Below are positions 815 through 45,637 of a DNA stretch of 64,000 nt, one piece after another. Source of the stretch: Primulina eburnea. Its lineage: Eukaryota > Streptophyta > Magnoliopsida > Lamiales > Gesneriaceae. The stretch is from positions 45,498-109,497 of the forward strand of contig NW_027331331.1 in NCBI RefSeq assembly GCF_022965805.1, in the 5' to 3' direction. The notes under the pieces are model-generated. The model did not search any database and had not been told where the DNA came from. It saw only the letters and a program-made list of their open reading frames with translations. How positions within the stretch are numbered: position 1 is the stretch's first letter; each line of letters starts with the position of its first letter. The translations under genes and the position numbers were made by a program.

Positions 815-3800
815 TTAGTCCTAGGCAACCCCAAAATAAAGTCCATAGAAATGTAATCCAAGTTCTTTTTAAGAATAGCACGCAAAAGTGTTCCCAAAAT
901 TCTATTGACAACTTCAGTTTGTCCATCCGTTTGAGGATGACAAGTAGTAGAAAACAACAATTTGTGCCAAGTTTAGCTCATAAAGTATTCCAAAAGTAAC
1001 TCAAGAATTGAACATCGCGACGAGAAACAATAGTCCTAGGCATGCCATGCAACCTAGCGACTTCTCTAAAGATCAAATCCGCAATGTTTGAAGAATCATC
1101 GGTTTTATGACAAACTATAAAATATGCCATATTAGAGAATCTATCCACAACAACAAAAATAGAATCCCTCCCCTTCTTAGTCCTAGGCAACCCCAAAATA
1201 AAGTCCATATAAATGTCAATCCAAGTTCGTTTTAAGAAGAGCACGCAAAAGTGTTCCCAAAGTTCTATTCACAACTTCAGTTTGTCCATCCGTTTGAGGA
1301 TGACAAGTAGTAGAAAACAACAATTAGTGCCAAGTTTAGCTCATAAAGTATTCCAAAAGTAACTCTAGAATTTAACATCGCGACGAGAAACAATAGTCCT
1401 AGGCATGCCATGCAACCTAGCGACTTCTCTAAAGATCAAATCCGCTATGTTTGAAGCATCATCGGTTTTATGACAAGCTATAAAATGTGCCATATTTAAG
1501 AATCTATACACAACAACAAAAATAGAATCCCTCCCCTTCTTAGTCCTAGGCAACCCCAAAATAAAGTCCATAGAAATGTCAATCCAAGTTCTTTTTAAGA
1601 ATAGCATGCAAAGGTGTTCCCAAAGTTCTATTGACAACTTCAGTTTGTCCATCCGTTTGAGGATGACAAGTAGTAGAAAACAACAATTTTGTGCCAAGTT
1701 TAGCCCATAAAGTATTCCAAAAGTAACTCAAAAATTTAACATCGCAACGAGAAACAATAGTCCTAGGCATGCCATGCAACCTAGCGACTTCTCTAAAGAA
1801 CAAATCCGCAATGTTTGAAGCATCATCGGTTTTATGACAAGCTATAAAATTTTTCATCTTAGAGAATTTATCTACAACAACAAAAATAGAATCCCTCCCC
1901 TTCTTAGTCCTAGGCAACCCAAAAATAAAGTCCATAGAAATGTCAATCCAAGTTCTTTTTAAGAATAGCACGCAAAAGTGTTCCCAAAGTTCTATTGACA
2001 ACTTCAGATTGTCCATCCGTTTGAGGATGACAAGTAGTAGAAAACAACAATTTTGTGCCAAGTTTAGCCCATAAAGTCTTCCAAAAGTAACTCACGAATT
2101 TAACATCGCGACGAGAAACAATAGTCCTAGGCATGCCACGCAACCTAACGACTTCTCTAAAGAACAAATCCGCAATGTTTGAAGCATCATCGGGTTTATG
2201 ACAAGCTATAAAATGTGCCATCTTAGAGAATCTATCCACAACAACAAAAATAGAATCCCTCCCCTTCTTAGTCCTAGGCAACCCCAAAATAAAGTCCATA
2301 GAAATGTCAATCCAAGTTATTTTTAAGAATAGCACGCAAAAGTGTTCCCAAAGTTCTATTGACAACTTCAGTTTGTCCATCCGTTTGAGGATGACAAGTA
2401 GTAGAAAACAACAATTTTGTGCCCAGTTTAGCCCATAAAGTATTCCAAAAGTAACTCAAGAATTTAACATCGCGACGAGAAACGATAGTCCTAGGCATGC
2501 CATGCAACCTAGCGACTTCTCTAAAGAACAAATCAGCTACGTTTGAAGCATCATCGGTTTTATGACAAGCTATAAAATGTGCCATCTTAGATAATCTATC
2601 CACAACAACAAAAATAGAATCCCTCTCCTTCTTAGTCCAAGGCAACCCCAAAATAAAGTTCATAGAAATGTCAATCCAAGTTCTTTTTAAGAATAGCACG
2701 CAAAAGTGTTCCCAAAGTTCTATTGACAACTTCAGATTATCCATCCGTTTGAGGATGACAAGTAGTAGAAAACAACAATTTTGTGCCAAGTATAGCCCAT
2801 AAAGTCTTCCAAAAGTAACTCAAGAATTTAACATCGCGACGAGAAACAATAGTCCTAGGCATGCCATGCAGCCTAGCTACTTCTCTAAAGAACAAATCCG
2901 CTATGTTTGAAGCATCATCGGTTTTATGACAAGCTATTAAATGTGCCATCATAGAGAATCTATCCACAACAACAAAAATAGAATCCCTCCCCTTCTTAGT
3001 CCTAGGCAACTCCAAAATAAAGTCCATAGAAATGTCAATCCAAGTTCTTTTTAAGAATAGCACGCAAAAATGTTCCCAAAGTTCTATTGACAACTTAAGT
3101 TTTTCCATCCGTTTGAGGATGACAAGTAGTAAAAAACAACAATTTGTGCCAAGTTTAGCTCATAAAGTATTCCAAAAGTAACTCAAGAATTTAACATCGC
3201 GACGAGAAACAATAGTCCTAGGCATGCCATGCAACCTAACGACTTCTCTAAAGAACAAATCCGCAATGTTTGAAGCATCATCGGTTTTATGACAAGCTAT
3301 AAAATGTGCCATCTTAGAGAATCTATCCACAACAACAAAAATAGAATCCATCCCCTTCTTAGTCCTAGGCAACCCCAAAATAAAGTCCATAGAAATGTCA
3401 ATCCAAATTCTTTTTAATAATAGCACGCAAAAGTGTTCAAAAAATTCTATTGACAACTTCAGTTTGTCCATCCGTTTGAGGATGACAAATAGTAGAAAAC
3501 AACAATTTGTGCCAAGTTTAGCTCATAAAGTATTCCAAAAGTAACTCAAGAATTGAACATCGCGACGAGACACAATAGTCTTAGGCATGCCATGCAACCT
3601 AGCGACTTCTCTAAAGATCAAATCCGCAATGTTTGAAGAATCATCGGTTTTATGACAAGCTATAAAATGTGCCATATTAGAGAATCTATCCACAAAAACA
3701 AAAATAGAATCCCTCCCCTTCTTAGTCCCAGGCAACCCCAAAATAAAGTCCATAGAAATGTCAATCCAAGTTCTTTTCAAGAATAGCACGCAAAAGTGTT

Positions 3801-6800
3801 CCCAAAGTTCTATTGACAACTTCAGATTGTCCATCCGTTTGAGGATGACAAGTAGTAGAAAACAACAATTAGTACCAAGTTTAGCTCATAAAGTATTCCA
3901 AAAGTAACTCAAGAATTTAACATCGTGACGAGAAACAATAGTCCTAGGCATGCCATGCAACCTAGCTACTTCTCTAAAGAACAAATCCGCTATGTTTAAA
4001 GCATCATCGGTTTTATGACAAGCTATAAAATGTGCCATCTTAGAGAATCTATTCACAACAACGAAAATAGAATCCCTCCCCTTCTTAGTCCTAGGCAACC
4101 TAAAATAAAGTCCATAGAAATGTCAATCCAAGTTCTTTTTAAGAATAGCACGCAAAGGTGTTCCCAAAGTTCTATTGACAACTTCAGTTTGTCCATCAGT
4201 TTGAGGATGACAAGTAGTAGAAAACAACAATTTTGTGCCAAGTTTAGCCCATAAAGTCTTCCAAAAGTAACTCAAGAATTTAACATCGCGACGAGAAACA
4301 ATACTCCTAGGCATGCCACGCAACCTAAAGACTTCTCTAAAGAACAAATCCGCAATGTTTGAAGCATCATCGGTTTTATGACAAGCTATAAAATGTGCCA
4401 TCTTAGAGAATCTATCCACAACAACAAAAATAGAATCCCTCCCTTTCTTAGTCCTAGGCAACCCCAAAATAAAGTCCATAGAAATGTCAATCCAAGTTCT
4501 TTTTAAGAATAGCACGCAAAAGTGTTCCCAAAATTCTATTGACAACTTCAGTTTGTCCATCCGTTTGAGGATGACAAGTAGTAGAAAACAACAATTTGTG
4601 CCAAGTTTAGCTCATAAAGTATTCCAAAAGTAACTCAAGAATTTAACATCGCGACGAGAAACAATAGTTCTAGGCATGCCATGCAACCTAGCGACTTCTC
4701 TAAAGAACAAATCAGCTACGTTTGAAGCATCATCGGTTTTATGACAAGCTATAAAATGTGCCATCTTAGAGAATCTATCCACAACAATAAAAATAGAATC
4801 CCTCCCCTTCTTAGTCCTAGGCAACCCCAAAATAAAGTCCATAGAAATGTCAATCCAAGTTCTTTTTAAGAATAGCACGCAAAGGTGTTCCCAAAGTTCT
4901 ATTGACAACTTCAGTTTGTCCATCAGTTAGAGGATGACAAGTAGTAGAAAACAACAATTTTGTGCCAAGTTTAGCCCATAAAGTCTTCCAAAAGTAACTC
5001 AAGAATTTAACATCGCGACGAGAAACAATAGTCCTAGGCATGCCACGCAACCTAACGACTTCTCTAAAGAACAAATCCGCAATGTTTGAAGCATCATCGG
5101 TTTTATGACAAGCTATAAAATGTGCCATCTTAGAGAATCTATCCACAACAACAAAAATAGAATCCCTCCCTTTCTTAGTCCTAGGCAACCCCAAAATAAA
5201 GTCCATAGAAATGTCAATCCAAGTTCTTTTTAAGAATAGCACGCAAAAGTGTTACCAAAATTCTATTGACAACTTCAGTTTGTCCATCCGTTTGAGGATG
5301 ACAAGTAGTAGAAAACAACAATTTGTGCCAAGTTTAGCTCATAAAGTATTCCAAAAGTAACTCAAGAATTTAACATCGCGACGAGAAACAATAGTTCTAG
5401 GCATACCATGCAACCTAGCGACTTCTCTAAAGAACAAATCAGCTACATTTGAAGCATCATCGGTTTTATGACAAGCTATAAAATGTGCCATCTTAGAGAA
5501 TCTATCCACAACAATAAAAATAGAATCCCTCCCCTTCTTAGTCCTAGGCAACCCCAAAATAAAGTCCATAGAAATGTCAATCCAAGTTCTTTTTAAGAAT
5601 AGCACGCAAAAGTGTTCCCAAAGTTATATTGACAACTTCAGTTTGTCCATCAGTTTGAGGATGACAAGTAGTAGAAAACTACAATTTTGTGCCTAGTTTA
5701 GCCCATAAAGTCTTCCAAAAGTAATTCAAGAATTTAACATCGCGACGAGAAACAATATTCCTAGGCATGCCATGCAACCTTGCGACTTCTCTAAAGAACA
5801 AATCCGCTATGTTTGAAGCATCATCGGTTTTATGACAAGCTATAAAATGTGCCATCTTAGAGAATCTATCCACAACAAAAAAAATAGAATCCCTCCTCTT
5901 CTTAGTCCTAGGCAACCCCAAAATAAAGTCCATATAAATGTCAATCCAAGTTCGTTTTAAGAAGAGCACGCAAAAGTGTTCCCAAAGTTCTATTCACAAC
6001 TTCAGTTTGTCCATCCGTTTGAGGATGACAAGTAGTAGAAAACAACAATTAGTGCCAAGTTTAGCTCATAAAGTATTCCAAAAGTAACTCTAGAATTTAA
6101 CATCGCGAGAGAAACAATAGTCCTAGGCATGCCATGCAACCTAGCGACTTCTCTAAAGATCAAATCCGCAATGTTTGAAGCATCATCGGTTTTATGACAA
6201 GCTATAAAATGTGCCATATTTGAGAATCTATCCACAACAACAAAAATAGAATCCCTCCCCTTCTTAGTCCTAGGCAACCCCAAAATAAAGTCCATAGAAA
6301 TGTCAATCCAAGTTCTTTTTAAGAATAGCACGCAAAGGTGTTCCCAAAGTTCTATTGACAACTTCAGTTTGTCCATCCGTTTGAGGATGACAAGTAGTAG
6401 AAAACAACAATTTTGTGCCAAGTTTAGCCCATAAAGTATTCCAAAAGTAACTCAAGAATTTAACATCACGACGAGAAACAATAGTCCTAGGCATGCCATG
6501 CAACCTAGCGACTTCTCTAAAGAACAAATCCGCAATGTTTGAAGCATCATCGGTTTTATGACAAGCTATAAAATTTTTCATCTTAGAGAATTTATCTACA
6601 ACAACAAAAATAGAATCCCTCCCTTCTTAGTCCTAGGCAACCCAAAAATAAAGTCCATAGAAATGTCAATCCAAGTCCTTTTTAAGAATAGCACGCAAAA
6701 GTGTTCCCAAAGTTCTATTGACAACTTCAGATTGTCCATCCGTTTGAGGATGACAAGTAGTAGAAAACAACAATTTTTGCCAAGTTTAGCCCATAAAGTC

Positions 6801-9800
6801 TTCCAAAAGTAACTCAAGAATTTAACATCGCGACGAGAAAAAATAGTCCTAGGCATGCCATGCAACCTAGCGACTTATCTAAAGAACAAATCCGCTATGT
6901 TTGAAGCATCATCGGTTTTATGACAAGCTATAAAATGTGCCATCTTAGAGAATCTATCCACAACAATAAAATAGAATCCCTCCCCTTCTTAGTCCTAGGC
7001 AACCCCAAAATAAAGTCCATAGAAATGTCAATCCAAGTTCTTTTTAAGAATAGCACGCAAAAGTGTTCCCAAAATTCTATTGACAACTTCAGTTTGTCCA
7101 TCCGTGTGAGGATGACAAGTAGTAGAAAACAACAATTTGTGCCAAGTTTAGCTCATAAAGTATTCCAAAAGTAACTCAAGAATTTAACATCGCGACGAGA
7201 AACAATAGTCCTAGGCATGCCATGCAACCTAGCGACTTCTCTAAAGAACAAATCAGCTACGTTTGAAGCATCATCAGTTTTATGACAAGCTATAAAATGT
7301 GCCATCTTAAAGAATCTATCCACAACAACAAAAATAGAATCCCTCCCATTCTAAGTCCTAGGCAACCCCAAAATAAAGTCCATAGAAATGTCAATCCAAG
7401 TTCTTTTTAAGAATATCACGCAAAAGTGTTCCCAAAATTCTATTGACAACTTCAGTTTGTCCATCCATTTGAGGATGACAAGTAGTAGAAAACAACAATT
7501 TTGTGCCAAGTTTAGCCCATAAAGTCTTCCAAAAGTAACTCAAGAATTTAACATCGCGACGAGAAACAATAATCCTAGGCATGCCACGCAACCTAACGAC
7601 TTCTCTAATGAACAAATCCGCAATTTTTGAAGCATCATCGGTTTTTGACAAGCTATAAAATGTGCCATCTTAGAGAATCTATACACAACAACAAATATAG
7701 AATCCCTCCCTTCTTAGTCCTAGGCAACCCCAAAATAAAGTCCATAGAAATGTCAATCCAAGTTCTTTTTAAGAATTGCACGCAAAAGTGTTCTCAAAAT
7801 TCTATTGACAACTTCAGTTTGTCCATCCGTTTGAGGATGACAAGTAGTAGAAAACAACAATTTTGTGCCAAGTTTAGCCCATAAAGTCTTCCAAAAGTAA
7901 CTCAAGAATTTAACATCGCGACGAGAAACAATAGTCCTAGGCATGCCACGCAACCTAACGACTTCTCAAAAGAACAAATCCGCAATGTTTGAAGCATCAT
8001 CGGTTTTTGACAAGCTATAAAATGTACCATCTTAGAGAATCTATACACAACAACAAATATAGAATCCCTCCCCTTCTTAGTCCTAGGCAACCCCAAAATA
8101 AAGTCCATAGAAATGTCAATCCAAGTTCTTTTTAAGAATAGCACGCAAAAGTGTTCCCAAAATTCTATTGACAACTTCAGTTTGTCCATCCGTTTGAGGA
8201 TGACAAGTAGTAGAAAACAACAATTTTGTGCCAAGTTTATCCCATAAAGTCTTCCAAAAGTAACTCAAGAATTTAACATCGCGACGAGAAACAATAGTCC
8301 TAGGCATGCCACGCAACCTAACGACTTCTCTAATGAACAAATCCGCAATGTTTGAAGCATCATCGGTTTTATGACAAGCTATAAAATGTGCCATCTTAGA
8401 GAATCTATACACAACAACAAATATAGAATCCCTCCCCTTCTTAGTCCTAGGCAACCCCAAAATAAAGTCCATAGAAATGTCAATCCAAGTTCTTTTTAAG
8501 AATTGCACGCAAAAGTGTTCCCAAAATTCTATTGACAACTTCAGTTTGTCCATCCGTTTGAGGATGACAAGTAGTAGAAAACAACAATTTTGTGCCAAGT
8601 TTAGCCCATAAAGTATTCCAAAAGTAACTCAAGAATTTAACATCGCGACGAGAAACAATAGTCCTAGGCATGCCATGCAACCTAGCGACTTCTCTAAAGA
8701 ACAAATCCGCAATGTTTGAAGCAACATTGGTTTTATGACAAGCTATAAATTTTGTCATCTTAGAGAATTTATCCACAACAACAAAAACAGAATCCCTCCC
8801 CTTCTTACTCCTAGGCAACCCCAAAATAAAGTCCATAGAAATGTCAATCCAAGTTCTTTTTAAGAATTGCACGCAAAAGTGTTCTCAAAATTCTATTGAC
8901 AACTTCAGTTTGTCCATCCGTTTGAGGATGACAAGTAGTAGAAAACAACAATTTTTTGCCAAGTTTTGCCCATAAAGTCTTCCAAAAGTAACTCAAGAAT
9001 TTAACATCGCGACGAGAAACAATAGTCCTAGGCATGCCACGCAACCTAACGACTTCTCAAAAGAACAAATCCGCAATGTTTGAAGCATCATCGGTTTTTG
9101 ACAAGCTATAAAATGTGCCATCTTAGAGAATCTATACACAACAACAAATATAGAATCCCTCCCCTTCTTAGTCCTAGGCAACCCCAAAATAAAGTCCATA
9201 GAAATGTCAATCCAAGTTCTTTTTAAGAATTGCACGCAAAAGTGTTCCCAAAATTCTATTGACAACTTCAGTTTGTCCATCCGTTTGAGGATAACAAGTA
9301 GTAGAAAACAACAATTTTGTGCCAAGTTTAGCCCATAAAGTATTCCAAAAGTAACTCAAGAATTTAACATCACGACGAGAAACAATAGTCCTAGGCATGC
9401 CACGCAACCTAACGACTTCTCTAAAGAACAAATCCGCAATGTTTGAAGCATCATCGGTTTTATGACAAGCTATAAAATGTGCCATCTTAGAGAATCTATA
9501 CACAACAACAAAAATAGAATCCCTCCCCTTCTTAGTCCTAGGCAACCCCAAAATAAAGTCCATAGAAATGTCAATCCAAGTTCTTTTTAAGAATAGCACG
9601 CAAAAGTGTTCCAAAGTTCTATTGACAACTTCAGATTGTCCATCCGTTTGAGGATGACAAGTAGTAGAAAACAACAATTTTGTGCCAAGTTTAGCCCATA
9701 AAGTCTTCCAAAAGTAACTCAAGAATTTAACATCGCGACGAGAAAAAATAGTCCTAGGCATGCCATGCAACCTAGCGACTTATCTAAAGAACAAATCCGC

Positions 9801-12800
9801 TATGTTTGAAGCATCATTGGTTTTATGACAAGCTATAAAATGTGCCATCTTAGAGAATCTATCCACAACAACAAAAATAGAATCACTCCCCTTCTTAGTC
9901 CTAGGAAACCCCAAAATAAAGTCCATAGAAATGTCAATCCAAGTTATTTTTAAGAATAGCACGCAAAAGTGTTCCCAAAATTCTATTGACAACTTCAGTT
10001 TGTCCATCCGTTTGAGGATGACAAGTAGTAGAAAACAACAATTTGTGTCAAGTTTAGCTCATAAAGTATTCTTAAAGTAACTCAAGAATTTAACATCGCG
10101 ACGAGAAACAATAGTCCTGGGCATGCCATGCAACCTAGCGACTTCTCTAAAGAACAAGTCAGCTACGTTTGAAGCATCATCGATTTTATGACAAGCTATA
10201 AAATGTGCCATCTTAGAGAATCTTTCCACAACAACAAAAATATAATCCCTCCCCTTCTAAGTCCTAGGCAACCCCAAAATAAAGTCCATAGAAATGTCAA
10301 TCCAAGTTCTTTTTAAGAATAGCACGCAAAAGTGTTCCCAAAATTCTATTGACAACTTCAGTTTGTCCATCCGTTTGAGGATGACAAGTAGTAGAAAACA
10401 ACAATTTTGTGTCAAGTTTAGCCCATAAAGTATTCCAAAAGTAACTCAAGAATTTAACATCGCGACGAGAAACAATAATCCTAGGCATGCCACGCAACCT
10501 AACGACTTCTCTAATGAACAAATCCGCAATGTTTGAAGCATCATCGGTTTTATGACAAGCTATAAAATGTGCCATCTTGGAGAATCTATACACAACAACA
10601 AATATAGAATCCCTCCCCTTCTTAGTCCTAGGCAACCCCAAAATAAAGTCCATAGAAATGTCAATCCAAGTTCTTTTTAAGAATTGCACGCAAAAGTGTT
10701 CCCAAAATTCTATTGACAATTTCAGTTTGTCCATCCGTTTGAGGATGACAAGTAATAGAAAACAACAATTTTGTGCCAAGTTTAGCCCATAAAGTCTTCC
10801 AAAAGTAACTCAAGAATTTAACATCGCGACGAGAAACAATAGTCCTAAGCATGCGACGCAACCTAACGACTTCTAAAAAGAACAAATCCGCAATGTTTGA
10901 AGCATCATCGGTTTTTGACAAGCTATAAAATGTGCCATCTTAGAGAATCTATACACAACAACAAATATAGAATCCCTCCCCTTCTTAGTCCTAGGCAACC
11001 CCAAAATAAAGTCCATAGAAATGTCAATCCAAGTTCTTTTTAAGAATTGCACGCAAAAGTGTTCCCAAAATTCTATTGACAACTTCAGTTTGTCCATCCG
11101 TTTGAGGATAACAAGTAGTAGAAAATAACAATTTTGTGCCAAGTTTAGCCCATAAAGTCTTCCAAAAGTAACTCAAGAATTTAACATCACGACGAGAAAC
11201 AATAGTCCTAGGCATGCCACGCAACCTAACGACTTCTCTAAAGAACAAATCCGCAATGTTTGAAGCATCATCGGTTTATGACAAGCTATAAAATGTGCCA
11301 TCTTAGAGAATCTATACACAACAACAAAAATAGAATCCCTCCCCTTCTTAGTCCTAGGCAACCCCAAAATAAAGTCCATAGAAATGTCAATCCAAGTTCT
11401 TTTTAAGAATAGCACGCAAAAGTGTTCCCAAAGTTCTATTGACAACTTCAGATTGTCCATCCGTTTGAGGATAACAAGTAGTAGAAAACAACAATTTTGT
11501 GCCAAATTTAGCCCATAAAGTCTTCCAAAAGTAACTCAAGAATTTAACATCGCGACGAGAAAAAATAGTCCTAGGCATGCCATGCAACCTAGCGACTTAT
11601 CTAAAGAACAAATCCGCTATGTTTGAAGCATCATCGGTTTTATGACAAGCTATAAAATGTGCCATCTTAGAGAATCTATCCACAACAACAAAAATATAAT
11701 CCCTCCCCTTCTAAGTCCTTGGCAACCCCAAAATAAAGTCCATAGAAATGTCAATCCAAGTTCTTTTTAAGAATAGCACGCAAAAGTGTTTCCAAAATTC
11801 TATTGACAACTTCAGTTTGTCCATCCGTTTGAGGATGACAAGTAGTAGAAAACAACAATTTGTGCCAAGTTTAGCTCATAAAGTCTTCCAAAAGTAACTC
11901 AAGAATTTAACATCGCGACGAGAAACAATATTCCTACGCATGCCATGCAACCTAGCGACTTCTCTAAAGAACAAATCTGCTACGTTTGAAGCATCATCGG
12001 TTTTATGACAAGCTATAAAATGTGCCATCTTAGAGAATCTATCCACAACAACAAAAATAGAATCCCTCCCCTTCTAAGTCCTAGGCAACCCCAAAATAAA
12101 GTCCATAGAAATGTCAATCCAAGTTCTTTTTAAGAATAGCACGCAAAAGTGTTCCCAAAATTCTATTGACAACTTCAGTTTGTCCATCCGTTTGAGGATG
12201 ACAAGTAGTAGAAAACAACAATTTTGTGCCAAGTTTAGCCCATAAAGTCTTCCAAAAGTAACTCAAGAATTTAACATCGCGACGAGAAACAATAATCCTA
12301 GGCATGCCACGCAACCTAACGACTTCTCTAAAGAACAAATCCACAATGTTTGAAGCATCATCGGTTTTATGACAAGCTATAAAATGTGCCATCTTAGAAA
12401 ATCTATACACAACAACAAATATAGAATCCCTCCCCTTCTTAGTCCTAGGCAACCCAGAATAAAGTCCATAGAAATGTCAATCCAAGTTCTTTTTAAGAAT
12501 TGCACGCAAAAGTGTTCCCAAAATTCTATTGACAACTTCAGTTTGTCCATCCGTTTGAGGATGACAAGTAGTAGAAAACAACAATTTTGTGTCAAGTTTA
12601 GCCCATAAAGTATTCCAAAAGTAACTCAAGAATTTAACATCGCGACGAGAAACAATAATCCTAGGCATGCCACGCAACCTAACGACTTCTCTAATGAACA
12701 AATCCGCAATGTTTGAAGCATCATCGGTTTTATGACAAGCTATAAAATGTGCCATCTTGGAGAATCTATACACAACAACAAATATAGAATCCCTCCCCTT

Positions 12801-18915: not shown

Positions 18916-18956
18916 CGTGTAATGCCAAGGATGAGCCATGTGTTCGAACCATGCAA

Positions 18957-28841: not shown

Positions 28842-29143
28842 GTGGGGTTGGATCAGGGTCGAGATGACGATGAGAGAAGACGAGTTAGCGTGGTGATTCC
28901 GGACTTGCAGTAGATTGGATTTTACTACTAGAACTTTAGTAGTGAACCTTAGATTAGAATGTTGTACATTTTTGTATTTTAATACTGAATTTGTATTTTT
29001 ATATACAGACATGTATAGTATTTAGATTCCATTACCTTCCGCAGTTATAATTTCAAAAGAAAATTTTTAGACCCTGTTTATCAGAACTGATAATTTAAAT
29101 CCGAATAACGATTAAGAAGATGATTAGCGTCCGGGTCCCCACA

Positions 29144-33441: not shown

Positions 33442-33485
33442 CTGTTGTCAAGTACACATATAGACAAGACAACAGCCGGATAATT
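33442..33485 (-). other. Hairpin in the solo LTR
   Basis: CTGTTGTC (33442-33449) and GACAACAG (33478-33485) form an 8-bp perfect stem at the position equivalent to 55162-55195 and 20151-20184. It is flanked by ccggaattatccgg-like sequence. Confidence 0.6.
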
Positions 33486-33681
33486 CCGGTGAGAATATAA
33501 TCCCAGTATAAATCAACGAAACATGCAATCATATAAACAAATATAAAGCATGTAATCAGGTAACAGATATATGTAACAAAGTCTGAAACATAATCAATAT
33601 CAAACTGTCGACAATACTCGTAGCTACATCATTCAGACTAGACTCAATCCTAGTCTAGGGATCCCGATTCCAGAAGTTGGC

Positions 33682-33985
33682 ATGCATATATCGACTAACA
33701 GTAATAGAAAAGACTCCAGTTTTATCCACGCCGATATGGTATCGATCAACAGTAATAGAAAAGACTCAAGTTCTATTCACATCGATACGGTATCGATTAC
33801 CAGTAATAGAGGAAGCTATTATTCTATCCACATCAATATAGTACCGATTAACAGTAATAGAAGCAACTCTAATTCTATCCACATCGATATGACATCGATT
33901 AACAGTAATAGAAGAGCTACTAATCTATCCACATCGATACAATACTGATTACCAGTAATAGAAAAAGCCACCATCCTATCCACAT
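33682..33985. repeat. 51-bp minisatellite, about 6 copies
   Basis: The string cagtaatag recurs at about 33699, 33750, 33801, 33852, 33903 and 33953, a period of 50-51 bp. Each unit contains atcgat and ctatccacatcgata elements. Because 51 is divisible by three, it produces a spurious 17-residue repeat ORF on the plus strand. A shorter, irregular version is in the sister solo LTR at 54779-54965. Confidence 0.85.
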
Positions 33986-35476: not shown

Positions 35477-35712
35477 ACACCGCGGGTGCGGTCACACAAG
35501 CACCGCGGGTGCGCTAAGCTCACGGCATTCCAACAAAATTCCCATGCACGATGACCGCGGGTGCGATGCTGCAATTACCGTGGGTGCGGTCTCACCGCGG
35601 GTGCGGTGCTTACACTGCCGCGGGTGCGGTGTCTTCACGGTGAAACCATCAAAATCCAACATAAATGACCGCGGGTGCGGTCCTTGCAAGGGTGCGGGTG
35701 CTGTACCACTTC
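35477..35712. repeat. CCGCGGGTGCGGT motif array (decayed copy) in the 3' LTR
   Basis: About eight motif copies. Several have C-to-T or similar changes relative to the equivalent copies at 41664-41895. The ORFs at 35492-35767 (minus) and 35544-35738 (plus) only translate this array. Confidence 0.85.
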
Positions 35713-35905
35713 GGCCAAGAACAAACCAAGGCAACTGAAAATCGAACCGAAACACTGAAACGAACAATCAACAACATCTAACACCTCAATAACAATAATA
35801 ACCAATAATACTATGGCCCAAAACACAACTCTAAACATCTAATCACATAACCCAAATAAACAAGTAAAGCTTAAACCGTACCGTACACCGGGCTCGGCTA
35901 TTACA

Positions 35906-35918
35906 ATCTCCCCTCCTT
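35906..35918 (-). promoter_or_regulatory. Polypurine tract of the minus-strand gypsy element
   Basis: On the minus strand AAGGAGGGGAGAT directly precedes TGTAATAGCC, the start of the 3' LTR. Confidence 0.85.
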
Positions 35919-35945
35919 AGAGGAATTTCGTCCGCGAAATTGACG

Positions 35946-36920
35946 TCACTGCACGAACAACTCAGGATACTTCTCTCTCATCTCAATCTCTGGTTCCCAC
36001 GTAGCCTCTTCGATCAAATGGTTCCTCCAAAGGACTTTAACGATGCCGATCTCTTTGTTCCTCAATACTCTAACTGTGCGATCCAGGATCTGAATCGGAA
36101 TCTCTTGGTAAGTCAGATTCGGCGTCAAGTCCAATGGCTCGTGGCGAAGAACATGGGAAGGATTCGCAATATAATTCCTGAGCATCGATACATGAAACAC
36201 ATTGTGAACTCTGTCAAGATCGGGCGGTAGGGCTAATCTGTAGGCTCTGTCACCAACTCTGTCCAAGATCTCGAAAGGGCAAATAAATCTCGGACTCAAC
36301 TTACCCTTCTTGCCAAATCTCATCACACCCTTGAGAGGTGCAATCTTCAGAAATACATGATCGCCAACCTCGAACTGCAAAGGTCTACGACGAACATCTG
36401 CATAGCTCTTCTGCCTCGACTGCGCTGTCTTCATCCTCTCACGGATCACGGCAACAACATCGGCCGTCTGCTGGACCAACTCTGGTCCCAACATCTTTCT
36501 CTCACCAACCTCATCCCAATACAAAGGCGATCTGCACTTCCTGCCATAAAGAGCCTCATGCGGTGCCATGCCAATCGACGCCTGGTAGCTATTGTTGTAC
36601 GTGAACTCCACAAGTAGCAATTTAGAATCCCTGCTACCAGAATAATCAATAGTACAAGCCCTGAGCATATCCTCAAGAATCTGAATGACTCTCTCTGACT
36701 GACCGTCGCTCTGAGGGTGATAAGCTGTACTGAAAGCTAATCGAGAACCCATAGCTCTGTGCAGACTCTTCCAAAACTCGGAGGTAAATCTGGGATCACG
36801 ATCAGACACAATCGACACAGGGACACCATGAAGTCTAACAATCTCTGCAATATAATCCTCGGCATACTGATTCATGGAGTACGTTGTCTTGACTGGGAGA
36901 AAGTGCGCTGACTTGGTCAA
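35946..36920 (-). pseudogene. Integrase C-terminal two thirds of the minus-strand gypsy element
   Basis: 324 codons from [10 protein letters not shown] to the end. It shows [12 protein letters not shown] and DGQSERVIQILEDML (second Asp and Glu of the DDE core), the NNSYQASIGMAPHEALYGRKCRSP motif region, GDHVFLKIAPLKG and a chromodomain-like end (VKVLWRNHLIEEATWE). It is in a different frame from the upstream integrase part: a deletion of roughly 20 bp near 36920 removed the segment that normally links KGYNSI to RLTKSAH. The frame ends at a natural-looking stop after KYPELFVQ. Confidence 0.92.
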
Positions 36921-37375
36921 ATAGAATTATAACCTTTCTGCACTCTGGGAAGACCAGTCACGAAATCCATCGTAATGTGCTCCCACTTCCACTGAGGAAT
37001 CGGCAAAGATAGCAATGTCCCAGCAGGTCTCTGGTGCTCAATCTTCACCTGCTGACAAGTAAGGCACTGAGAAATGAACAAAGCAACATCTTTCTTCATA
37101 CCTGGCCACCAATAGAGTCGACGAAGATCCTGATACATCTTCGTACTGCCTGGATGAATCGAATAAGGTGCGGTATGAGCCTCTGTCAAGACGTCTCTAC
37201 GAATATCGCCGCCAATAGGAACACAAATACGGCCTCTGAAAGTCACCAATCCATCATCATTCGAACCAAACTCTGAATTCCCTCTCTCCTCTGCTCTAGC
37301 TCTCAACTCTGTCAACTGAACATCAGTCGACTGCTCTCTACGGATCCTGTCCGTCAAAGTAGATCGAATAACCAA
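36917..37375 (-). pseudogene. Integrase N-terminal part (HHCC finger and first catalytic Asp)
   Basis: 152 codons containing H...H ([17 protein letters not shown]), the CLTCQQVK Cys pair of the zinc-binding domain, and [18 protein letters not shown] with the first catalytic Asp. It then runs into a stop created by the deletion near 36920. The sequence upstream of its first ATG is open in the same frame back to the stop at about 37427, so it is a continuation of the RNase H fragment. Confidence 0.9.
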
Positions 37376-37426
37376 CGTTGAAAGACAAGCAATGGTACCT
37401 GGAATAACCAGATCTATCTCCTCTCT

Positions 37427-37885
37427 CTACAAATCCATCAACAATGGCCTCTGAATCAAAGAACTCAATGAAGCACTCGACTTGCGACTCAACGCATCTG
37501 CCACAACGTTCGCCTTCCCTGGGTGGTAACTGAGAGTAACATCATAATCCTTGACAAGCTCTAACCACCTCCTCTGCCGCATGTTGAGCTCTTTCTGGGA
37601 GAACAGATACCTCAAACTCTTGTGGTCTGTGAAGATCTCACACTTTTCGCCATACAGATAATGTCTCCAAATCTTCAGGGCGAAAACCACAGCTGCTAAC
37701 TCCAAATCGTGCGTCGGATAATTTTTCTCATAATCCTTCAACTGGCGAGAAGCATAGGCAATGACCTTACCTCGCTGCATCAGCACTGCACCAAGGCCTC
37801 TCTTCGACGCATCGGTATAGACAACAAAATCCTCTGAACCACTAGGCAAAGAAAGAATATGAGCTGTCGTCAATCTATCCTTCAA
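37427..37885 (-). pseudogene. RNase H part of the minus-strand gypsy element
   Basis: 152 codons with [39 protein letters not shown] and [24 protein letters not shown], the standard gypsy RNase H motifs including Asp and Glu. It ends with VVADALSRK and a TAG that fits a CAG-to-TAG change in the linker before integrase. Upstream, a TGA at about 37916 separates it from RT in the same frame. Confidence 0.92.
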
Positions 37886-37915
37886 CTCCTGAAATGCACT
37901 CTGGCAATCGATAGA

Positions 37916-38860
37916 TCACTCGAATTTCACAGTCTTCCTAGTCAGATTGGACAATGGCAGGGCAATCTTGGAAAAATTTGAAATGAAACGGCGATAGTAA
38001 CCCGCCAAACCAAGGAAACTGCGTACCTCTGAAACAGAAGTAGGAATAGGCCAATTCTGAATCGCCTCTATCTTCAATGGATCGACAGCAATACTATCTC
38101 TCGAAACAACATGGCCTAGGAAAGAAATCTGATCCAGCCAAAACTCACACTTCTTCAATTTGGCAAACAACCTCTTCTCTCGCAACAACTGAAGAACCAC
38201 TCTGAGATGCTCTGCATGAAGCTCTCTGGTCTTGGAATAGATCAAGATATCGTCGATGAAAACAATGACGAAGCTATCCAAGAACGGCTTGAACACACGG
38301 TTCATCTGGTCCATGAAGACTGAAGGGGCATTGGTCAAACCAAAAGACATCATGAGAAACTCATAATGACCGTACCTGGTCCGGAACGCTGTCTTAGGGA
38401 TATCAGACTCCCTAACCTTCAACTGATAGTAGCCAGACCGAAGATCAATCTTCGAGAACACAGTGGCACCATGGAGCTGATCAAACAAATCATCTATCCG
38501 TGGCAACGGATAATTGTTCTTGACAGTCACTTTGTTGAGCTCCCTGTAGTCGATACACAGCCGCAAAGATCCATCCTTCTTCTTAACAAAAAGAACCGGA
38601 GCTCCCCAAGGCGAAGAACTCGGTCGAATGAAACCCTTGTCCACTAGATCCTGCAACTGCGCCTTCAACTCCTTCATCTCAGTAGGAGCCATCCGGTACG
38701 GAGCCTTAGAGATAGGAACCGTACCAGGAGCTAGATCGATAACGAACTCAACATCTCTGTCCGGCGGCAAACCCGGAACATCATCCTCAAACACATCAGC
38801 AAACTCCCTCACAACATCAATATCATCTATATTCAACTTAACCATACCATCAACATCCAC
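37916..38860 (-). pseudogene. Reverse transcriptase part of the minus-strand gypsy element
   Basis: 314 codons. Visible motifs are [73 protein letters not shown], the catalytic [11 protein letters not shown] and [13 protein letters not shown]. The domain is essentially complete. The frame differs from the protease fragment upstream because of a 1-bp indel near 38870. It ends at TGA (37916-37918), where the family normally has Trp, consistent with a TGG-to-TGA change. Confidence 0.93.
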
Positions 38861-39540
38861 AATAGAAGCAAGAAACCCATCGCAACTCTACACAGCAATC
38901 TCTCAGCCTCAAGACAAGAAATAAAAGGAAGGACCAGCGAAGTACCTGAGCTGGCGAGAGCTCCTCCCTGGCCACCATCTGCAAAAGTCACCTTCTTAGC
39001 AACACAATCGATAACTGCATGGTATGTCGAAAGCCAATCCATGCCAAGAATAACATCAAAGGCAACCATAGGGATAACAATCAAATCAGCGAAGACAACT
39101 CGCTCCTCAATACGAACAGGGCACGCAAACACAATCGACGTCGGGCACAACACGTCCCCCGAAGGCAAAACAACACTAAGCTGGAGGGGAAGAACAGAAG
39201 GAACTATACCCAAAGATCTCAAAAACAATTCAGACATAAAAGAATGAGTAGCACCAGTATCTATCAATGTCATAGCTACTCTGCCTAAAATCAAAATAGT
39301 ACTAGAGATCAATGAAGAATCATGATTAATACCTTCCTTGGTCATCGAAAAGATACGACCCTGCACCTTCCCTTGGCTAGCTCCTTGTGGACAATTCCAG
39401 GCAACGTGGCCTGCCGTGCCACAACGATAACAAGTATGAGTGCCAAATCTGCACTCTCCCCTATGATGCTTGCCACACTTCGGAAACAGCGGCTTCTCGG
39501 GATCAACTAGAACTGGCGGTGGTCTAGGACTCGGCTCCAT
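38833..39540 (-). pseudogene. Zinc knuckle and protease part of the minus-strand gypsy element
   Basis: 235 codons with CGKHHRGECRFGTHTCYRCG and a CX2CX4HX4C knuckle (CYRCGTAGHVAWNC), then the aspartic protease motif LIDTGATHSFMS and the ILGMDWLSTYHAVIDC segment typical of gypsy proteases. The last residues ([13 protein letters not shown]) are out of frame. The proper continuation is in the frame that becomes RT, so a single-base indel lies near 38865-38880. Confidence 0.9.
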
Positions 39541-39585
39541 CTTGCCCTTGCCCTTGAAACGATCCCTGCCCCTCTGATTAGAACC

Positions 39586-39837
39586 CTAGACTCTCTGAGC
39601 AACATCTTGATGCCTCTCTTGCCTCTCCCTGGCGATGTCCTTCTCATCCTGCTCGGCTAACAAAGCTTTGGACACGATCTCCTTGAAAGTAACAGCCTTG
39701 GACATGTTGATATCACGACGAATCTCAGCTCTAAGGCCTCGAATGAAATGAGCGCCTTTATCTTTGTCATTGGAAGCAATGTACGGAGCAAATAAGCAAC
39801 CCTCCTCAAACTTCAGAATATACTGACCAACATCCAT
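39586..39837 (-). pseudogene. Gag middle fragment of the minus-strand gypsy element
   Basis: 83 codons (MDVGQYILKFEEGCLFAPYI...) matching the C-terminal half of a retrotransposon gag domain, in the same frame as the first gag fragment and the protease fragment. It is bounded upstream by a TAG near 39848 (consistent with CAG to TAG) and downstream by a TAG at about 39586 before GSNQRGRDRFKGKGK. Confidence 0.85.
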
Positions 39838-39972
39838 GCTCCCCTATCGAAGCTCCAAGAACTCCGTAACCTTCCTCGCTCGAAGTGCATCGGGAAAATA
39901 CTTGTCGTAGAACAGGTCAGTGAACTCTGACCACTTCAGTGTCGCAACATCAACTCCAACTTTCGTGGCATT

Positions 39973-40344
39973 TCACCAGATACGTGCAGCTTTAACCAAC
40001 ATGAACACTGCACAGCTAATCCTGTCTTTGTCCTCATACTGGAGATGATCGAAGATAGCTTCAAGCGCCTTGACCCACTCGACAGCAACTAGAGGATCGG
40101 TGCTACCTGCGAATTCCGGTGGATCCATTCTCTTGAAAGCAGAAAAGACGGCATCAGTGCCAACAGCCTGAGCAACCTGACCTCTCACTTGGCCTCGACC
40201 CTGTCCTGCTCCTTGCAATCGGAGCAACTGCTGAATCTGATCGCTATGAACTTTGGCCTGCTCCTTAAGCAACTTGCCGAACTCGTCGACAACTCTCGAG
40301 GAAGAACTATCCTCACCCTCTGCCGCCTTACGCTTAGGAGGCAT
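39973..40344 (-). pseudogene. Gag N-terminal fragment of the minus-strand gypsy element
   Basis: 123 codons starting MPPKRKAAEGEDSSSSRVV. It contains MDPPEFAGSTDPLVAVEWVKALEAIF, the start of the retrotransposon gag domain, and ends AARIW before TGA, consistent with a TGG-to-TGA change. The start lies about 115 bp after the primer-binding site, a normal leader length. Between 39973 and 39838 the same frame stays readable as gag apart from the stops. Confidence 0.9.
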
Positions 40345-40458
40345 ACTCTACAATTGCTCACAAGACACCAATCAATATATAACAATGGATAGATGCAAGA
40401 AAACTTACCCGGACAGTTGAGAGTAGACGAAGTCATATGCATTGGTCCGAAGAACACC

Positions 40459-40470
40459 GCTCTGATACCA
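40459..40470 (-). promoter_or_regulatory. Primer-binding site (initiator tRNA-Met type)
   Basis: On the minus strand TGGTATCAGAGC lies 5 bases after the 5' LTR end (GTGTCACA), a perfect match to the usual plant primer site. Confidence 0.95.
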
Positions 40471-40475
40471 CTAAA

Positions 40476-42091
40476 TGTGACACCCTGACCCGTAACATTA
40501 AAATAATACAGCGGAAATAAAATTTTCTTAAAAATATGGAAGGAGTTTCAAAATAAATTTCATGAAAATGTTTACAAAATAAATACATGATCATTCAAAT
40601 GATATACAAAATACAAAATAATCATTCTTATGATCATGTCCCAAAATGATACAAAATAATCTTCCTTCCAACGGTGTATGCATATGACTCCCATCCACGA
40701 TCACTGTCCTGGTCGGTTACTCTTATCTGCATCACATGAAAATAACTGAAATGAGAATAAATCTCAGCAAGTGGAACTCTAACATAGCAATGATACAATA
40801 TACTCTGAAAAACATGACTTTGAAATCATAAATACCATCAACTCTAAAACATGAATACTGTAGAAATAACTGTAGCAATAGCATATCAATAAGATAGCAA
40901 TAAGATGGTATTCTCTTTTCTCTGGTTGGATTGATATCAATAGTATCTCTGCTCTGGTGCTAATATCCCTATCGATATAAACCGATAACTCTGAGGGATA
41001 AAAGCCTATGGTCGTTGATCAACTAATTGCATGCAATGCTCTGACTATGATTAATCAATCCAATAAAACATTTGAACTCTGAATATCATTTAAAGCCGTC
41101 GTTTCGCAATCTCTATCTTATCTCTTGTATTCCCTTTTTAACAATAGTGAGACATACAATGCCTCCAATAGATAATCAATGAAATCAATACATAACAATG
41201 GATCAATGGAAGGGAATAACACTTTGAAACCTTTAAAACACAATACATATAATATCATGTGAGCAAAAGGATGAAATTCCACTTACAAATCAATAGAACA
41301 CCTCCAACTAAACTCTTGGTACACCACCTACAACAATAATCAATAAATAATACCAATATCAACTCTATATCCACAAATACAAGTCAAATAATCCATTAAC
41401 CAACTCAAACATCAAGCCCAAGTCAACCATTAACTCAAAACCTTAATAGAATCGCACCAAAAACTTACCTAAGCTTCCTTATACCACGGAGAACGTCGAT
41501 CTCAAGTCGGAAATCCAAATAACTCCAAGAATCAAAGGTAGGAAGCAAAAGAAATGGAGGATAACCCTTGGAAATGGAGAGAAAAATCGGAAATGAAGAA
41601 GGAGATAAGGTATGGTATGGCCAACAACTCCCAAAAAGCAACTAAATATCTCGCCCATACTTACACCGCGGGTGCGGTCACACAAGCACCGCGGGTGCGC
41701 TAAGCTCACGGCATTCCAACAAAATTCCCATGCACGATGACCGCGGGTGCGGTGCTGCAATTACCGCGGGTGCGGTCTCACCGCGGGTGCGGTGCTTACA
41801 CTGCCGCGGGTGCGGTGTCTTCACGGTGAAACCATCAAAATCCAACATAAATGACCGCGGGTGCGGTCCTTGCAAGGGTGCGGGTGCGGTACCACTTCGG
41901 CCAAGAACAAACCAAGGCAACTGAAAATCGAACCGAAACACTGAAACGAACAATCAACAACATCTAACACCTCAATAACAATAATAACCAATAATACTAT
42001 GGCCCGAAACACAACTCTAAACATCTAATCACATAACCCAAATAAACAAGTAAAGCTTAAACCGTACCGTACACCAGGCTCGGCTATTACA
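40476..42091 (-). repeat. 5' LTR of the minus-strand gypsy element
   Basis: On the minus strand it runs from TGTAATAGCCGAGCC at 42091 to GGGTGTCACA at 40476, about 1616 bp. It shows the uninterrupted sequence that the solo LTR split in the other LTR, which confirms the AAAAC target site. Confidence 0.95.
41664..41895. repeat. CCGCGGGTGCGGT motif array in the 5' LTR
   Basis: About eight copies, most matching the 13-base consensus, in U3 of the minus-strand LTR. The positions match those at 35477-35712. The motif is shared with the otherwise different LTR at 441-680. Confidence 0.85.
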
Positions 42092-45000
42092 GAATCTATT
42101 CACAACAACGAAAATAGAATCCCTCCCCTTCTTAGTCCTAGGCAACCTAAAATAAAGTCCATAGAAATGTCAATCCAAGTTCTTTTTAAGAATAGCACGC
42201 AAAGGTGTTCCCAAAGTTCTATTGACAACTTCAGTTTGTCCATCAGTTTGAGGATGACAAGTAGTAGAAAACAACAATTTTGTGCCAAGTTTAGCCCATA
42301 AAGTCTTCCAAAAGTAACTCAAGAATTTAACATCACGACGAGAAACAATAGTCCTAGGCATGCCACACAACCTAACGATTTCTCTAAAGAACAAATCCGC
42401 AATGTTTGAAGCATCATCGGTTTTATGACAAGCTATAAAATGTGCCATCTTAGAGAATCTATCCACAACAACAAAAATAGAATCCCTCCCCTTCTTAGTC
42501 CTAGGCAACCCAAAAATAAAGTCCATAGAATTGTCAATCCAAGTTCTTTTTAAGAATAGCACGCAAAAGTGTTCCCAAAATTCTATTGACAACTTCAGTT
42601 TGTCCATCCGTTTGAGGATGACAAGTTGTAGAAAACAACAATTTGTGCCAAGTTTAGCTCATAAAGCATTCCAAAAGTAACTCAAGAATTTAACTTCGTG
42701 ACGAGAAACAATAGTCCTATGCATGCCATGCAACCTAGCGACTTCTCTAAAGAACAAATCAGCTACGTTTGAAGCACCATCGGTTTTATGACAAGCTATA
42801 AAATGTGCCATCTTTGAGAATCTATCCACAACAACAAAAATATAATCCCTCCCCTTCTAAGTCCTAGGCAACCCCAAAATAATGTCCATAGAAATGTCAA
42901 TCCAAGTTCTTTTTAAGAATAGCACGCAAAAGTGTTCCCAAAGTTATATTGACGACTTCAGTTTGTCCATCAGTTTGAGGATAACAAGTAGTAGAAAACA
43001 ACAATTTTGTGCCAAGTTTAGCCCATAAAGTCTTCCAAAATTAATTAAAGAATTTAACATCGCGACGAGAAACAATATTCCTAGGCATGCCATGCAACCT
43101 ATCGACTTCTATAAAGAACAAATCCGCTATGTTTGAAGCATCATCGGTTTTATGACAAGCTATAAAATGTGTCATCTTAGAGAATCTATCCACAACAAAA
43201 AAATAGAATCCCTCCCCTTCTTAGTCCTAGGCAACCCCAAAATAAAGTCCATATAAATGTCAATCCAAGTTCGTTTTAAGAAGAGCATGCAAAAATGTTC
43301 CCAAAGTTCTATTCACAACTTCAGTTTGTCCATCCGTTTGAGGATGACAAGTAGTAGAAAACAACAATTAGTGCCAAGTTTAGCTCATAAAGTATTCCAA
43401 AAGTAACTCAAAAATTTAACATCGCGACGAGAAACAATAGTCCTAGGCATGCCATGCAACCTAGCGACTTCTATAAAGAAAAAATCCGCAATGTTTGAAG
43501 AATCATCGGTTTTATGACAAGCTATAAAATGTGCCATCTTAGAGAATCTATCCACAACAACAAAAATAGAATCCCTCCTCTTCTTAGTCCTAGGCAACCC
43601 CAAAATAAAGTCCATAGAAATGTCAATCCAAGTTCTTTTTAAGAATAGCACGAAAAGGTGTTCCCAAAGTTCTATTGACAACTACAGTTTGTCCATCCGT
43701 TTGAGGATGACAAGTAGTAAAAAACAACAATTTTGTGCCAAGTTTAGCCCATAAAGTATTCCAAAAGTAACTCAAGAATTTAACATCGCGACGAGAAACA
43801 ATAGTCCTAGGCATGCCATGCAACCTAGCGACTTCTCTAAAGAACAAATCAGCTACGTTTGAAGCATCATCGGTTTTATGACAAGCTATAAAATGTGCCA
43901 TCTTAGAGAATCTATCCACAACAACAAAAATATAATCCCTCCCCTTCTTAGTCCTAGGCAACCCCAAAATAAAGTCCATAGAAATGTCAATCCAAGTTCT
44001 TTTTAAGAATAGCACGCAAAAGTGTTCCCAAAGTTATATTGACAACTTCAGTTTGTCCATCAGTTTGAGGATGACAAGTAGTAGAAAACAACAATTAGTG
44101 CCAAGTTTAGCTCATAAAGTATTCCAAAAGTAACTCAAGAATTTAACATCGCGACGAGAAACAATAGTCCTAGGCATGCCATGCAACCTAGCGACTTCTA
44201 TAAAGAACAAATCCGCAATGTTTGAAGCATCATCGGTTTTATGACAAGCTATAAAATGTGCCATCTTAGAGAATCTATCCGCAACAACAAAAATAGAATC
44301 CCTCCTCTTCTTAGTCCTAGGCAACCCCAAAATGAAATCCATAGAAATGTCAATCCAAGTTCTTTTTAAGAATAGCACGAAAAGGTGTTCCCAAAGTTCT
44401 ATTGACAACTACAGTTTGTCCATCCGTTTGAGGATGACAAGTAGTAAAAAACAACAATTTTGTGCCAAGTTTAGCTATAAAGTATTCCAAAAGTAACTCA
44501 AGAATTTAACATCGCGACAAGAAACAATAGTCCTAGGCATGCCATGCAACCTAGCGACTTCTCTAAAGATCAAATCCTCAATGTTTGAAGCATCATCGGT
44601 TTTATGACAAGCTATAAAATGTGCCATATTTGAGAATCTATCCAGAAAAACAAAAATAGAATCCCTCCCCTTCTTAGTCCTAGGCAACCCCAAAATAAAG
44701 TCCATAGAAATGTCAATCCAAGTTCTTTTAAGAATAGCACGCAAAGGTGTTCCCAAAGTTCTATTGACAACTTAAGTTTGTCCATCAGTTTGAGGATGAC
44801 AAGTAGTAGAAAACAACAATTTTGTGCCAAGTTTAGCCCATAAATTATTCCAAAATTAACTCAAGAATTTAACATCGCGATGAGAAACAATAGTCCTAGG
44901 CATGCCAGGCAACCTAGCGACTTCTCTAAAGAACAAATCCGCAATGTTTGAAGCATCATCGGTTTTATCACAAGCTATAAAATTTGTCATCTTAGAGAAT

Positions 45001-45637
45001 TTATCCACAACAAAAAAAATAGAATCCCTCCCCTTCTTAGTCCTAGGCAACCCCAAAATAAAGTCCATATAAATGTCAATCCAAGTTCGTTTTAAGAAGA
45101 GCACGCAAAAATGTTCCCAAAGTTCTATTCACAACTTCAGTTTGTCCATCCGTTTGAGGATGACAAGTTGTAGAAAACAACAATTAGTGCCAAGTTTAGC
45201 TCATAAAGTATTCCAAAAGTAACTCAAGAATTTAACATCGCGACGAGAAACAATAGTCCTAGGCATGCCATGCAACCTAGCGACTTATCTAAAGAACAAA
45301 TCCGCTATGTTTGAAGCATCATCGGTTTTATGACAAGCTATAAAATGTGCCATCTTAGAGAATCTATCCACAACAACAAAAATAGAATCCCCCCCCCTTC
45401 TTAGTCCTAGGCACCCCCAAAATAAAGTCCATATAAATGTCAATCCAAGTTCTTTTTAAGAATAGCACGCAAAAGTGTTCCCAAAATTCTATTGACAACT
45501 TTAGTTTGTCCATCCGTTTGAGGATGACAAGTAGTAGAAAACAACAATTTGTGCCAAGTTTAGCTCATAAAGTATTCCAAAAGTAACTCAAGAATTTAAC
45601 ATCGCGACGAGAAACAATAGTCCTAGGCATGCCATTC
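42092..45637 (-). repeat. Satellite array, block 3: about 10 integrase-derived units
   Basis: Resumes in phase with block 2 after the gypsy element. The first unit carries the same rare variant block (tctattcacaacaacgaaaa with ggcaacctaaaataaag) seen at 4050-4260, 16760-16970 and 31300-31510. Units here include several with frame-breaking changes and a C homopolymer near 45391. The block stops abruptly within a unit at 45637, where the copia LTR begins. Confidence 0.95.

What the first reader, a model, noticed from the sequence alone, without database searches (positions are those of the whole stretch)
815..45637. A satellite built from the coding core of a retrotransposon integrase
About 67 head-to-tail units of 363-364 bp (about 24.2 kb after removing insertions) each encode, on the minus strand, the DDE core of a Ty3/gypsy integrase and nothing else of the element. 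Satellites derived from LTRs or untranslated regions are known; one made from an internal pol fragment at this scale is uncommon. The unit resembles chromovirus (CRM/Reina-like) integrases, so a centromeric or pericentromeric role is possible. That last point is inference.
Basis: partly seen in the sequence, partly recalled or inferred. Interest (0 to 1): 0.88.

Follow-up and report, generated by a model that had tools for sequence, protein, structure and literature searches.

The report
Satellite DNA from a retrotransposon integrase
A plant genome carries tens of thousands of tandem copies of a 364-base piece cut from the integrase gene of a centromere-type retrotransposon; the piece no longer makes a working protein and behaves as ordinary satellite DNA, possibly in the heterochromatin around centromeres.

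Summary
The window has about 67 head-to-tail units of 363/364 bp (24.2 kb), interrupted by LTR retrotransposons with target-site duplications. The array belongs to a genome-wide satellite: a junction-specific 28-mer occurs 45,546 times in the 812-Mb assembly; I estimate about 66,000 units, near 3% of the genome, seen on at least 14 of 18 chromosome-size contigs. A unit is 121 codons of an integrase core plus one base. A related full-length element of the same genome differs from 23 such units at 44% of third but only 11% and 5% of first and second codon positions; the units differ from one another equally at all three. The junction carries CTT, present at both breakpoints in the element. Corrections: the second catalytic Asp is missing in 61 of 61 scored motifs, and only 17 of 61 units keep the frame. 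So this is non-coding DNA founded by a CRM-like integrase fragment whose active-site Asp was lost at or near founding. A centromeric role is untested. Satellites from TE coding regions are known; I saw none from integrase.

The parts
815..18241 (-). Satellite block 1, about 48 units of 363/364 bp; sense (integrase) strand is minus
   Evidence: TRF 48.0 copies; blastn
18242..29143 (+). Insertion 1: LTR-type sequence (TGTAATG...CCCACA) with 5-bp TSD CCCTC (18237-18241 / 29144-29148), itself split by a complete chromodomain-bearing chromovirus at 18522-27338 (TSD CGGGC; LTRs K2P 0.0097)
29144..32391 (-). Satellite block 2, about 9 units, continuing in phase with block 1
32392..42091 (-). Insertion 2: Ty3/gypsy LTR element, TSD GAATC (32387-32391 / 42092-42096), LTRs K2P 0.0151; its left LTR carries a nested 1.9-kb LTR-like insertion at 33158-35048 (TSD AAAAC)
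42092..45637 (-). Satellite block 3, about 10 units (both ends partial)
45638..64000 (+). Right-hand insertion: LTR element starting TGTTAGAG; the same LTR sequence again at 63266-64000 where the contig ends (K2P 0.0124 over 735 bp); nested elements inside
   Evidence: contig length
1..814 (.). End of a further repeat, probably inserted, bounding the array on the left; satellite is found again upstream on the contig
29197..29676 (-). Example ORF reading through one junction and one unit; matches residues 1168-1290 of the 7q5b chain; first and second catalytic Asp both replaced
2630..2992 (-). Reference unit used for the searches

Best explanation
The array is a block of a genome-wide satellite whose founding monomer was a 121-codon stretch of the integrase core of a CRM-like Ty3/gypsy element. 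Shown: the unit is codons W..N of the core plus one base (364 bp); in the element copies read, both breakpoints carry CTT, which is kept once at the satellite junction; the line leading to the founder was under purifying selection, while the units now drift without coding constraint; copies are spread over at least 14 chromosomes with about 94-98% identity between most places sampled. Inferred: a microhomology-mediated tandem duplication inside one element copy gave the first dimer, and unequal exchange, gene conversion or circle-based amplification made it a satellite, with later derivatives (about 200-bp, 350-bp and 357-bp forms) and local re-amplification (C15, 99.5%). It makes no working integrase; it most likely acts, if at all, as repetitive heterochromatin in pericentromeric regions (my probability for that location about 0.55), and is now being broken up by LTR retrotransposons.
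For: Array and unit. Copy number: 23,790 + 21,756 exact junction 28-mers, reversed-pattern control 0; 254 of 369 sampled near-matches are exact. Breadth. Integrase identity. Same-genome relatives with D, D and E in place in 5 of 5 compared. Codon positions, 23 units of 364 bp against one element: 13.3 / 6.3 / 53.7 differences of 121; unit against unit 9.0 / 9.0 / 9.1; five elements among themselves 0 / 0 / 8.9; column heterozygosity over 65 units 0.052 / 0.040 / 0.045. Breakpoints: element CCTTGG and AACTTA in the two copies printed, satellite AACTTGG. Shared loss of the catalytic Asp: R in 22 and S in 1 of 23 units, against D in 109, N in 2, H in 1 and motif not found in 8 of 120 database relatives. 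TE insertions with TSDs inside the array.
Against: The parent family is not in hand: in the 12 element loci compared, the element cores are at most about 84% (nt) identical to a unit (higher values there are satellite lying beside the element). A 3-bp microhomology could be chance. Location relative to centromeres was not tested. The codon-position counts include a few frame-disturbed units (lowest aa identity 0.39), though one search uses an alignment and agrees.
Confidence: 0.85

Rival explanations
1. The satellite is the CENH3-bearing centromeric repeat of this species, derived from a CRM integrase and functionally recruited.
For: High copy, at least 14 of 18 chromosomes, listed hits often clustered, for example C13 12.3-13.2 Mb, C9 9.7-10.9 Mb, C10 25.0-25.7 Mb; source is CRM-like. 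CRM-derived tandem repeats in or near maize centromeres are published (PMC3648361, passages seen).
Against: Some chromosomes show hits several Mb apart (C10 25.4 against 30.2 and 31.0; C15 6.25 and 8.4; C8 13.0 to 19.7; C1 14.0 and 32). No CENH3 data. The array in the window is old enough to have been cut by several LTR elements.
Confidence: 0.3
2. The units are still selected to make an integrase-core peptide (for example a dominant-negative or DNA-binding domain).
For: 17 of 61 units keep an open frame across the core.
Against: Equal variation at the three codon positions; the 363-bp units are frame-shifted; a stop just past the junction in the reading frame of the core (NLD*); catalytic Asp lost.
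Confidence: 0.02
3. The tandem array is a local assembly artefact.
For: The window lies on a 109-kb contig that ends inside an LTR.
Against: The same unit is on chromosome-size and many small contigs, in both strands; TSD-flanked insertions inside the array with in-phase continuation.
Confidence: 0.02
4. The satellite spreads mainly as cargo of retrotransposons (units carried inside elements) rather than by satellite-type recombination.
For: Four LTR-satellite junctions at exactly the same unit position on C1, C6 and C626, so some arrays may have been copied together with a CRM-type LTR.
Against: At one of these (L052, C1) the LTR is a solo LTR with TSD TAAAG and satellite on both sides, i.e. 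inserted into satellite. Whether arrays are enclosed by LTRs elsewhere was not tested systematically.
Confidence: 0.08

Closest known systems
CRM1TR and CRM4TR of maize (Sharma et al. 2013, PMC3648361; passages seen)
   Same: Tandem repeats derived from CRM-clade retrotransposons, interrupted by later LTR insertions, origin proposed through illegitimate recombination.
   Different: Those come from LTR + UTR and are described from a few loci; this comes from the integrase core coding sequence alone and is on at least 14 chromosomes.
TE-coding-region satellites: rye E3900 (gag ORF), LINE ORF2-derived satellites, CficCl-61-40 of the Chenopodium album aggregate (CACTA Tnp2) (review and its table, PMC9659126; passages seen)
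   Same: Satellite monomer from a TE open reading frame.
   Different: Different gene; the word integrase does not occur in that review's main text.
Ogre 3'UTR-derived satellites of Lathyrus (PMC7004042; passages seen)
   Same: Plant Ty3/gypsy origin, amplified to satellites.
   Different: Start from short tandem repeats already present in the element's 3'UTR; here a coding stretch was duplicated.
CRM clade of plant chromoviruses (Neumann et al. 2011, PMC3059260; passages and section 6 read)
   Same: Related same-genome elements: integrase without type II chromodomain; LTR ends of the TGATG and T/CATCA type.
   Different: The RARA[RK] motif reported for the CR domain (as told in PMC13270711, passage seen) is RGRLK in the two element copies printed, and the copies listed are dispersed.

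Membership tests
Satellite DNA | Long head-to-tail arrays, high copy, homogenised, many chromosomes | tested here: met
Satellite DNA | Heterochromatic, located at centromere, pericentromere or subtelomere | not testable with these tools
   Only assembly coordinates were available
CRM clade (source element) | LTR termini TGATG ... T/CATCA | tested here: met
   Solo LTR in L052 begins TGATG, ends TATCA, TSD TAAAG; a matching 3' end, within one mismatch, in 11 of 12 element loci. The 5' LTR ends of the element copies themselves were not in the fetched stretches
CRM clade (source element) | Integrase lacks type II chromodomain (groups A and B) | tested here: met
   No PF00385 at E <= 1 in the L057 integrase nor in 10 of 10 long database relatives scanned
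CRM clade group A | CR motif with RARA[RK] | tested here: not met
   Same-genome elements L057 and L063 read GPITRGRLKRF. RARA[RK] is present in 5 of the 11 database relatives read whose sequence reaches that region
CRM clade (source element) | RT/integrase phylogeny groups with named CRM references | not tested
   No labelled reference set was held; the call CRM-like rests on the rows above
Functional Ty3/gypsy integrase | D, D, E catalytic triad | tested here: not met
   Second D absent in 61 of 61 scored motifs
Functional Ty3/gypsy integrase | Purifying selection on the frame | tested here: not met
Centromeric satellite (CENH3-associated) | CENH3 enrichment | not testable with these tools
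   No chromatin data

The most novel reading that the evidence does not exclude
A centromere-type retrotransposon supplied the species' main (peri)centromeric satellite from its own integrase gene, the active site being lost at or near founding; younger relatives of that element now insert into the satellite their lineage created, so element and satellite form a loop in which the transposon builds its own landing site.
Probability: 0.25. Interest if true: 0.7.

Novelty: new variant of a known kind. Interest (0 to 1): 0.5.

Why it matters
It shows that a coding, catalytically central piece of a retrotransposon can become a very abundant satellite of a plant genome (near 3% by estimate). The codon-position switch (selection before founding, none after) marks the birth of a satellite from a gene in the sequence itself, and the 1-base frame offset per unit and the lost active-site Asp argue that the protein played no part in its spread. 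If the satellite proves centromeric, it gives a datable case of a CRM-lineage element founding a centromere repeat.

Tried and rejected
Rejected: the inserted elements in the window as parents (their integrases are about 45-50% identical to the units in the matches listed). Rejected: that non-junction matches to the satellite 24-mer are parent elements; all 10 loci (L021-L030) are satellite arrays or subfamilies. Rejected: simple higher-order structure in block 1; mean identity is flat (95.2-96.0%) over lags 1-24, although one pair 15 units apart is identical. Not decided: preferential insertion of CRM-like elements into the satellite. For: 3 of 12 element loci have satellite directly past the 3' LTR. 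Against or neutral: only 4 + 1 genome-wide LTR-end/satellite hits for one 16-mer within a 0-30 base range in the two orientations, the 4 at one identical unit position; the count of all LTR ends did not complete. Organism not identified: the inserted chromovirus integrase has no near-identical relative in the protein database (highest identity among the 120 listed 63%, P0134 of Primulina huaijiensis); 18 chromosome-size contigs and that hit are only hints. Literature searches for a 363- or 364-bp centromere-linked satellite gave nothing that fits (listings; passages of one Crepis paper).

Full report
What is in the window. TRF and blastn confirm about 67 head-to-tail units, period 363/364 bp, in three blocks totalling 24,221 bp (815-18241, 29144-32391, 42092-45637). 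Mean pairwise identity of 65 near-full units is 95.3%, hardly different between neighbours (95.4%), and flat over lags 1-24 in block 1. The gaps between the blocks are LTR retrotransposon insertions with 5-bp target-site duplications: CCCTC around 18242-29143 (itself holding a complete chromodomain-bearing chromovirus with TSD CGGGC) and GAATC around 32392-42091; block 3 is cut at 45638 by a further LTR element that runs to the end of the contig. LTR divergences are 0.0097, 0.0151 and 0.0124; at 1.3e-8 substitutions per site per year (a recalled rate) that is roughly 0.4-0.6 million years, so the array is at least that old.

What the unit is. On the minus strand the unit translates to the integrase core; a 160-residue reading matches the Ty3 integrase of PDB 7q5b over 123 residues (E 5e-29), and two longer readings pass the Pfam rve cut-off. 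Counting from the junction, a 364-bp unit is 121 codons (W ... N) plus one base; the 363-bp units are one base shorter and so out of frame over part of the core. Reading on in the frame of the core meets a stop just past the junction (...NLD*). Of 61 junction-to-junction units, 17 are 364-bp units without a stop. The second catalytic Asp is R in 59, H in 1 and C in 1 of 61 scored motifs; the first is D in 29, Y in 20, N in 1 and E in 1 of 51.

How common it is. The window is C801:45498-109497 of an assembly of 812 Mb with 18 chromosome-size contigs. A 28-mer across the junction occurs 23,790 + 21,756 times, the reversed control 0 times. In the sequence given to (window and 26 loci, among them ten picked for odd junctions), 254 of 369 near-matches with up to two mismatches were exact. 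Scaling gives about 66,000 units, about 24 Mb or 3% of the assembly if all were full length; shorter subfamilies lower it and more diverged units raise it. Hits are on C1, C15 and C2, C3, C4, C5, C6, C8, C9, C10, C12, C13, C17, C18 (the list is cut, 198 hits in all), i.e. at least 14 of 18; C7, C11, C14 and C16 are not shown to lack it. Many listed hits cluster: 10 of 12 on C2 in 25.1-26.3 Mb, 16 of 19 on C10 in 25.39-25.47 Mb, 13 of 13 on C13 in 12.3-13.2 Mb. Others lie Mb away.

Subfamilies. 351 full units came from 16 places; among the 14 places tabulated, most are 94-98% alike between places and 95-99.5% inside, with C15 at 8.38 Mb 99.5% and C57 98.8% inside; part of C801 upstream of the window and C257 are about 85-88% from the rest and 77-81% inside. 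Arrays with about 190-205-bp period (C2, C174, C278) keep about 208 bp of the unit; a C1 stretch mixes 363- with 357-type and longer units. This fits repeated local re-amplification.

Origin. With a database relative (P0008) as query, the same genome gave 97 scored integrase matches at 75-78% identity over at least residues 1-401 of 433, some in open frames of 1648-1670 aa; a second query (P0011) gave 99, led by a second family. Five elements compared have D, D and E in place. One element against 23 units of 364 bp differs at 13.3, 6.3 and 53.7 of 121 first, second and third codon positions, while units differ from each other by 9.0, 9.0 and 9.1; over 65 aligned units the column heterozygosity is 0.052, 0.040 and 0.045. 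So the line leading to the founder was under strong purifying selection, and the satellite is not. All 23 units share V2I, V9I and loss of the Asp at residue 68 of the unit (22 R, 1 S); mean protein identity to the element is 90%, best 95%, lowest 39% in a frame-disturbed unit. Among 120 database relatives the position is D in 109, N in 2, H in 1 and not matched in 8. In the two element copies printed the left breakpoint reads CCTTGG and the right AACTTA; the satellite junction reads AACTTGG, so CTT is common to both, consistent with a microhomology-mediated tandem duplication. That step, and the later amplification by unequal exchange, gene conversion or circles, is inference. The element cores compared are at most about 84% identical to a unit, so the direct parent has not been found.

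Clade. The related element lacks a Pfam chromodomain, as do 10 of 10 long database relatives scanned. A solo LTR in L052, whose 3' end resembles that of the element copies, starts TGATG and ends TATCA with TSD TAAAG, which agrees with the CRM-clade ends given in PMC3059260 (passages and section 6 read). The CR-domain motif RARA[RK] (told in PMC13270711, passage seen) is RGRLK in the two element copies printed. I call the source CRM-like; a tree with named references was not made.

Relation of element and satellite. In 3 of 12 element loci (L056, L061, L065) the sequence directly past the 3' LTR is satellite; a 3% share would give 0.4. All three have the LTR-end variant CGTATC, shared by one further locus outside satellite, while the 7 scored loci with the CGTG variant are not in satellite (L060 not scored there). 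But a genome-wide search for LTR ends within 30 bases of one satellite 16-mer found only 4 (all at one unit position) + 1 hits in the two orientations, and the total of LTR ends could not be obtained. Targeting is therefore open. Element copies listed are spread along chromosomes.

Known work. CRM-derived tandem repeats of maize come from LTR and UTR (PMC3648361, passages). Ogre-derived satellites come from 3'UTR repeats (PMC7004042, passages). A review lists satellites from gag, LINE ORF2 and a CACTA transposase and does not use the word integrase in its main text (PMC9659126, passages). Searches for an integrase-derived or 363/364-bp plant satellite (listings, with passages opened) showed me no match in the held open-access library; subscription papers, including Cheng and Murata 2003 on a wheat Ty3/gypsy-derived centromeric repeat (not held), were not seen.

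Verdict. A real, abundant, non-coding satellite from the integrase core of a CRM-like retrotransposon: a new variant of a known kind. Its centromeric role is possible and untested.

Noticed in passing
window 18522-27338 and 18242-29143: Complete chromodomain-bearing chromovirus (LTRs 99.0% identical) nested in an older LTR-like insertion.
   Followed up: partly
window 45638-64000: Large LTR element with a copia-type gag-integrase ORF (49510-52146) and nested Ty3/gypsy sequence (repeat pair 52344-53511 / 60588-61704; ORFs 56023-59918); the contig ends inside the outer right LTR.
   Followed up: partly
window 523-604, 18645-18848, 25498-25701, 35554-35630, 41740-41817, 52463-53039, 60707-61234: GC-rich minisatellites (for example ACCGCGGGTGCGGT, AAGGGAAGATCAGCCCGGG) in inserted elements, several within their LTRs.
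   Followed up: no
P0001: A database protein from another contig holds a tandem duplication of the integrase core with a different junction, seemingly an independent duplication of the same region.
   Followed up: no
G000 C1:14036703, C6:11137396, C626:210704 and 214108: Four CRM-type LTR ends joined to the satellite at the identical unit position: an insertion hot spot or copies of one event.
   Followed up: partly
L054-L065, LTR 3' ends: The LTR-end variant CGTATC is in satellite in 3 of 4 loci, the CGTG variant in 0 of 7; small numbers.
   Followed up: no
L020 (C111:179001-189000) and L018 (C5:24035001-24045000): Satellite orientation switches strand within the locus.
   Followed up: no
L015 (C15:8380001-8390000): Array with units 99.5% alike and spacing mostly 364/365, a recent local expansion.
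   Followed up: no
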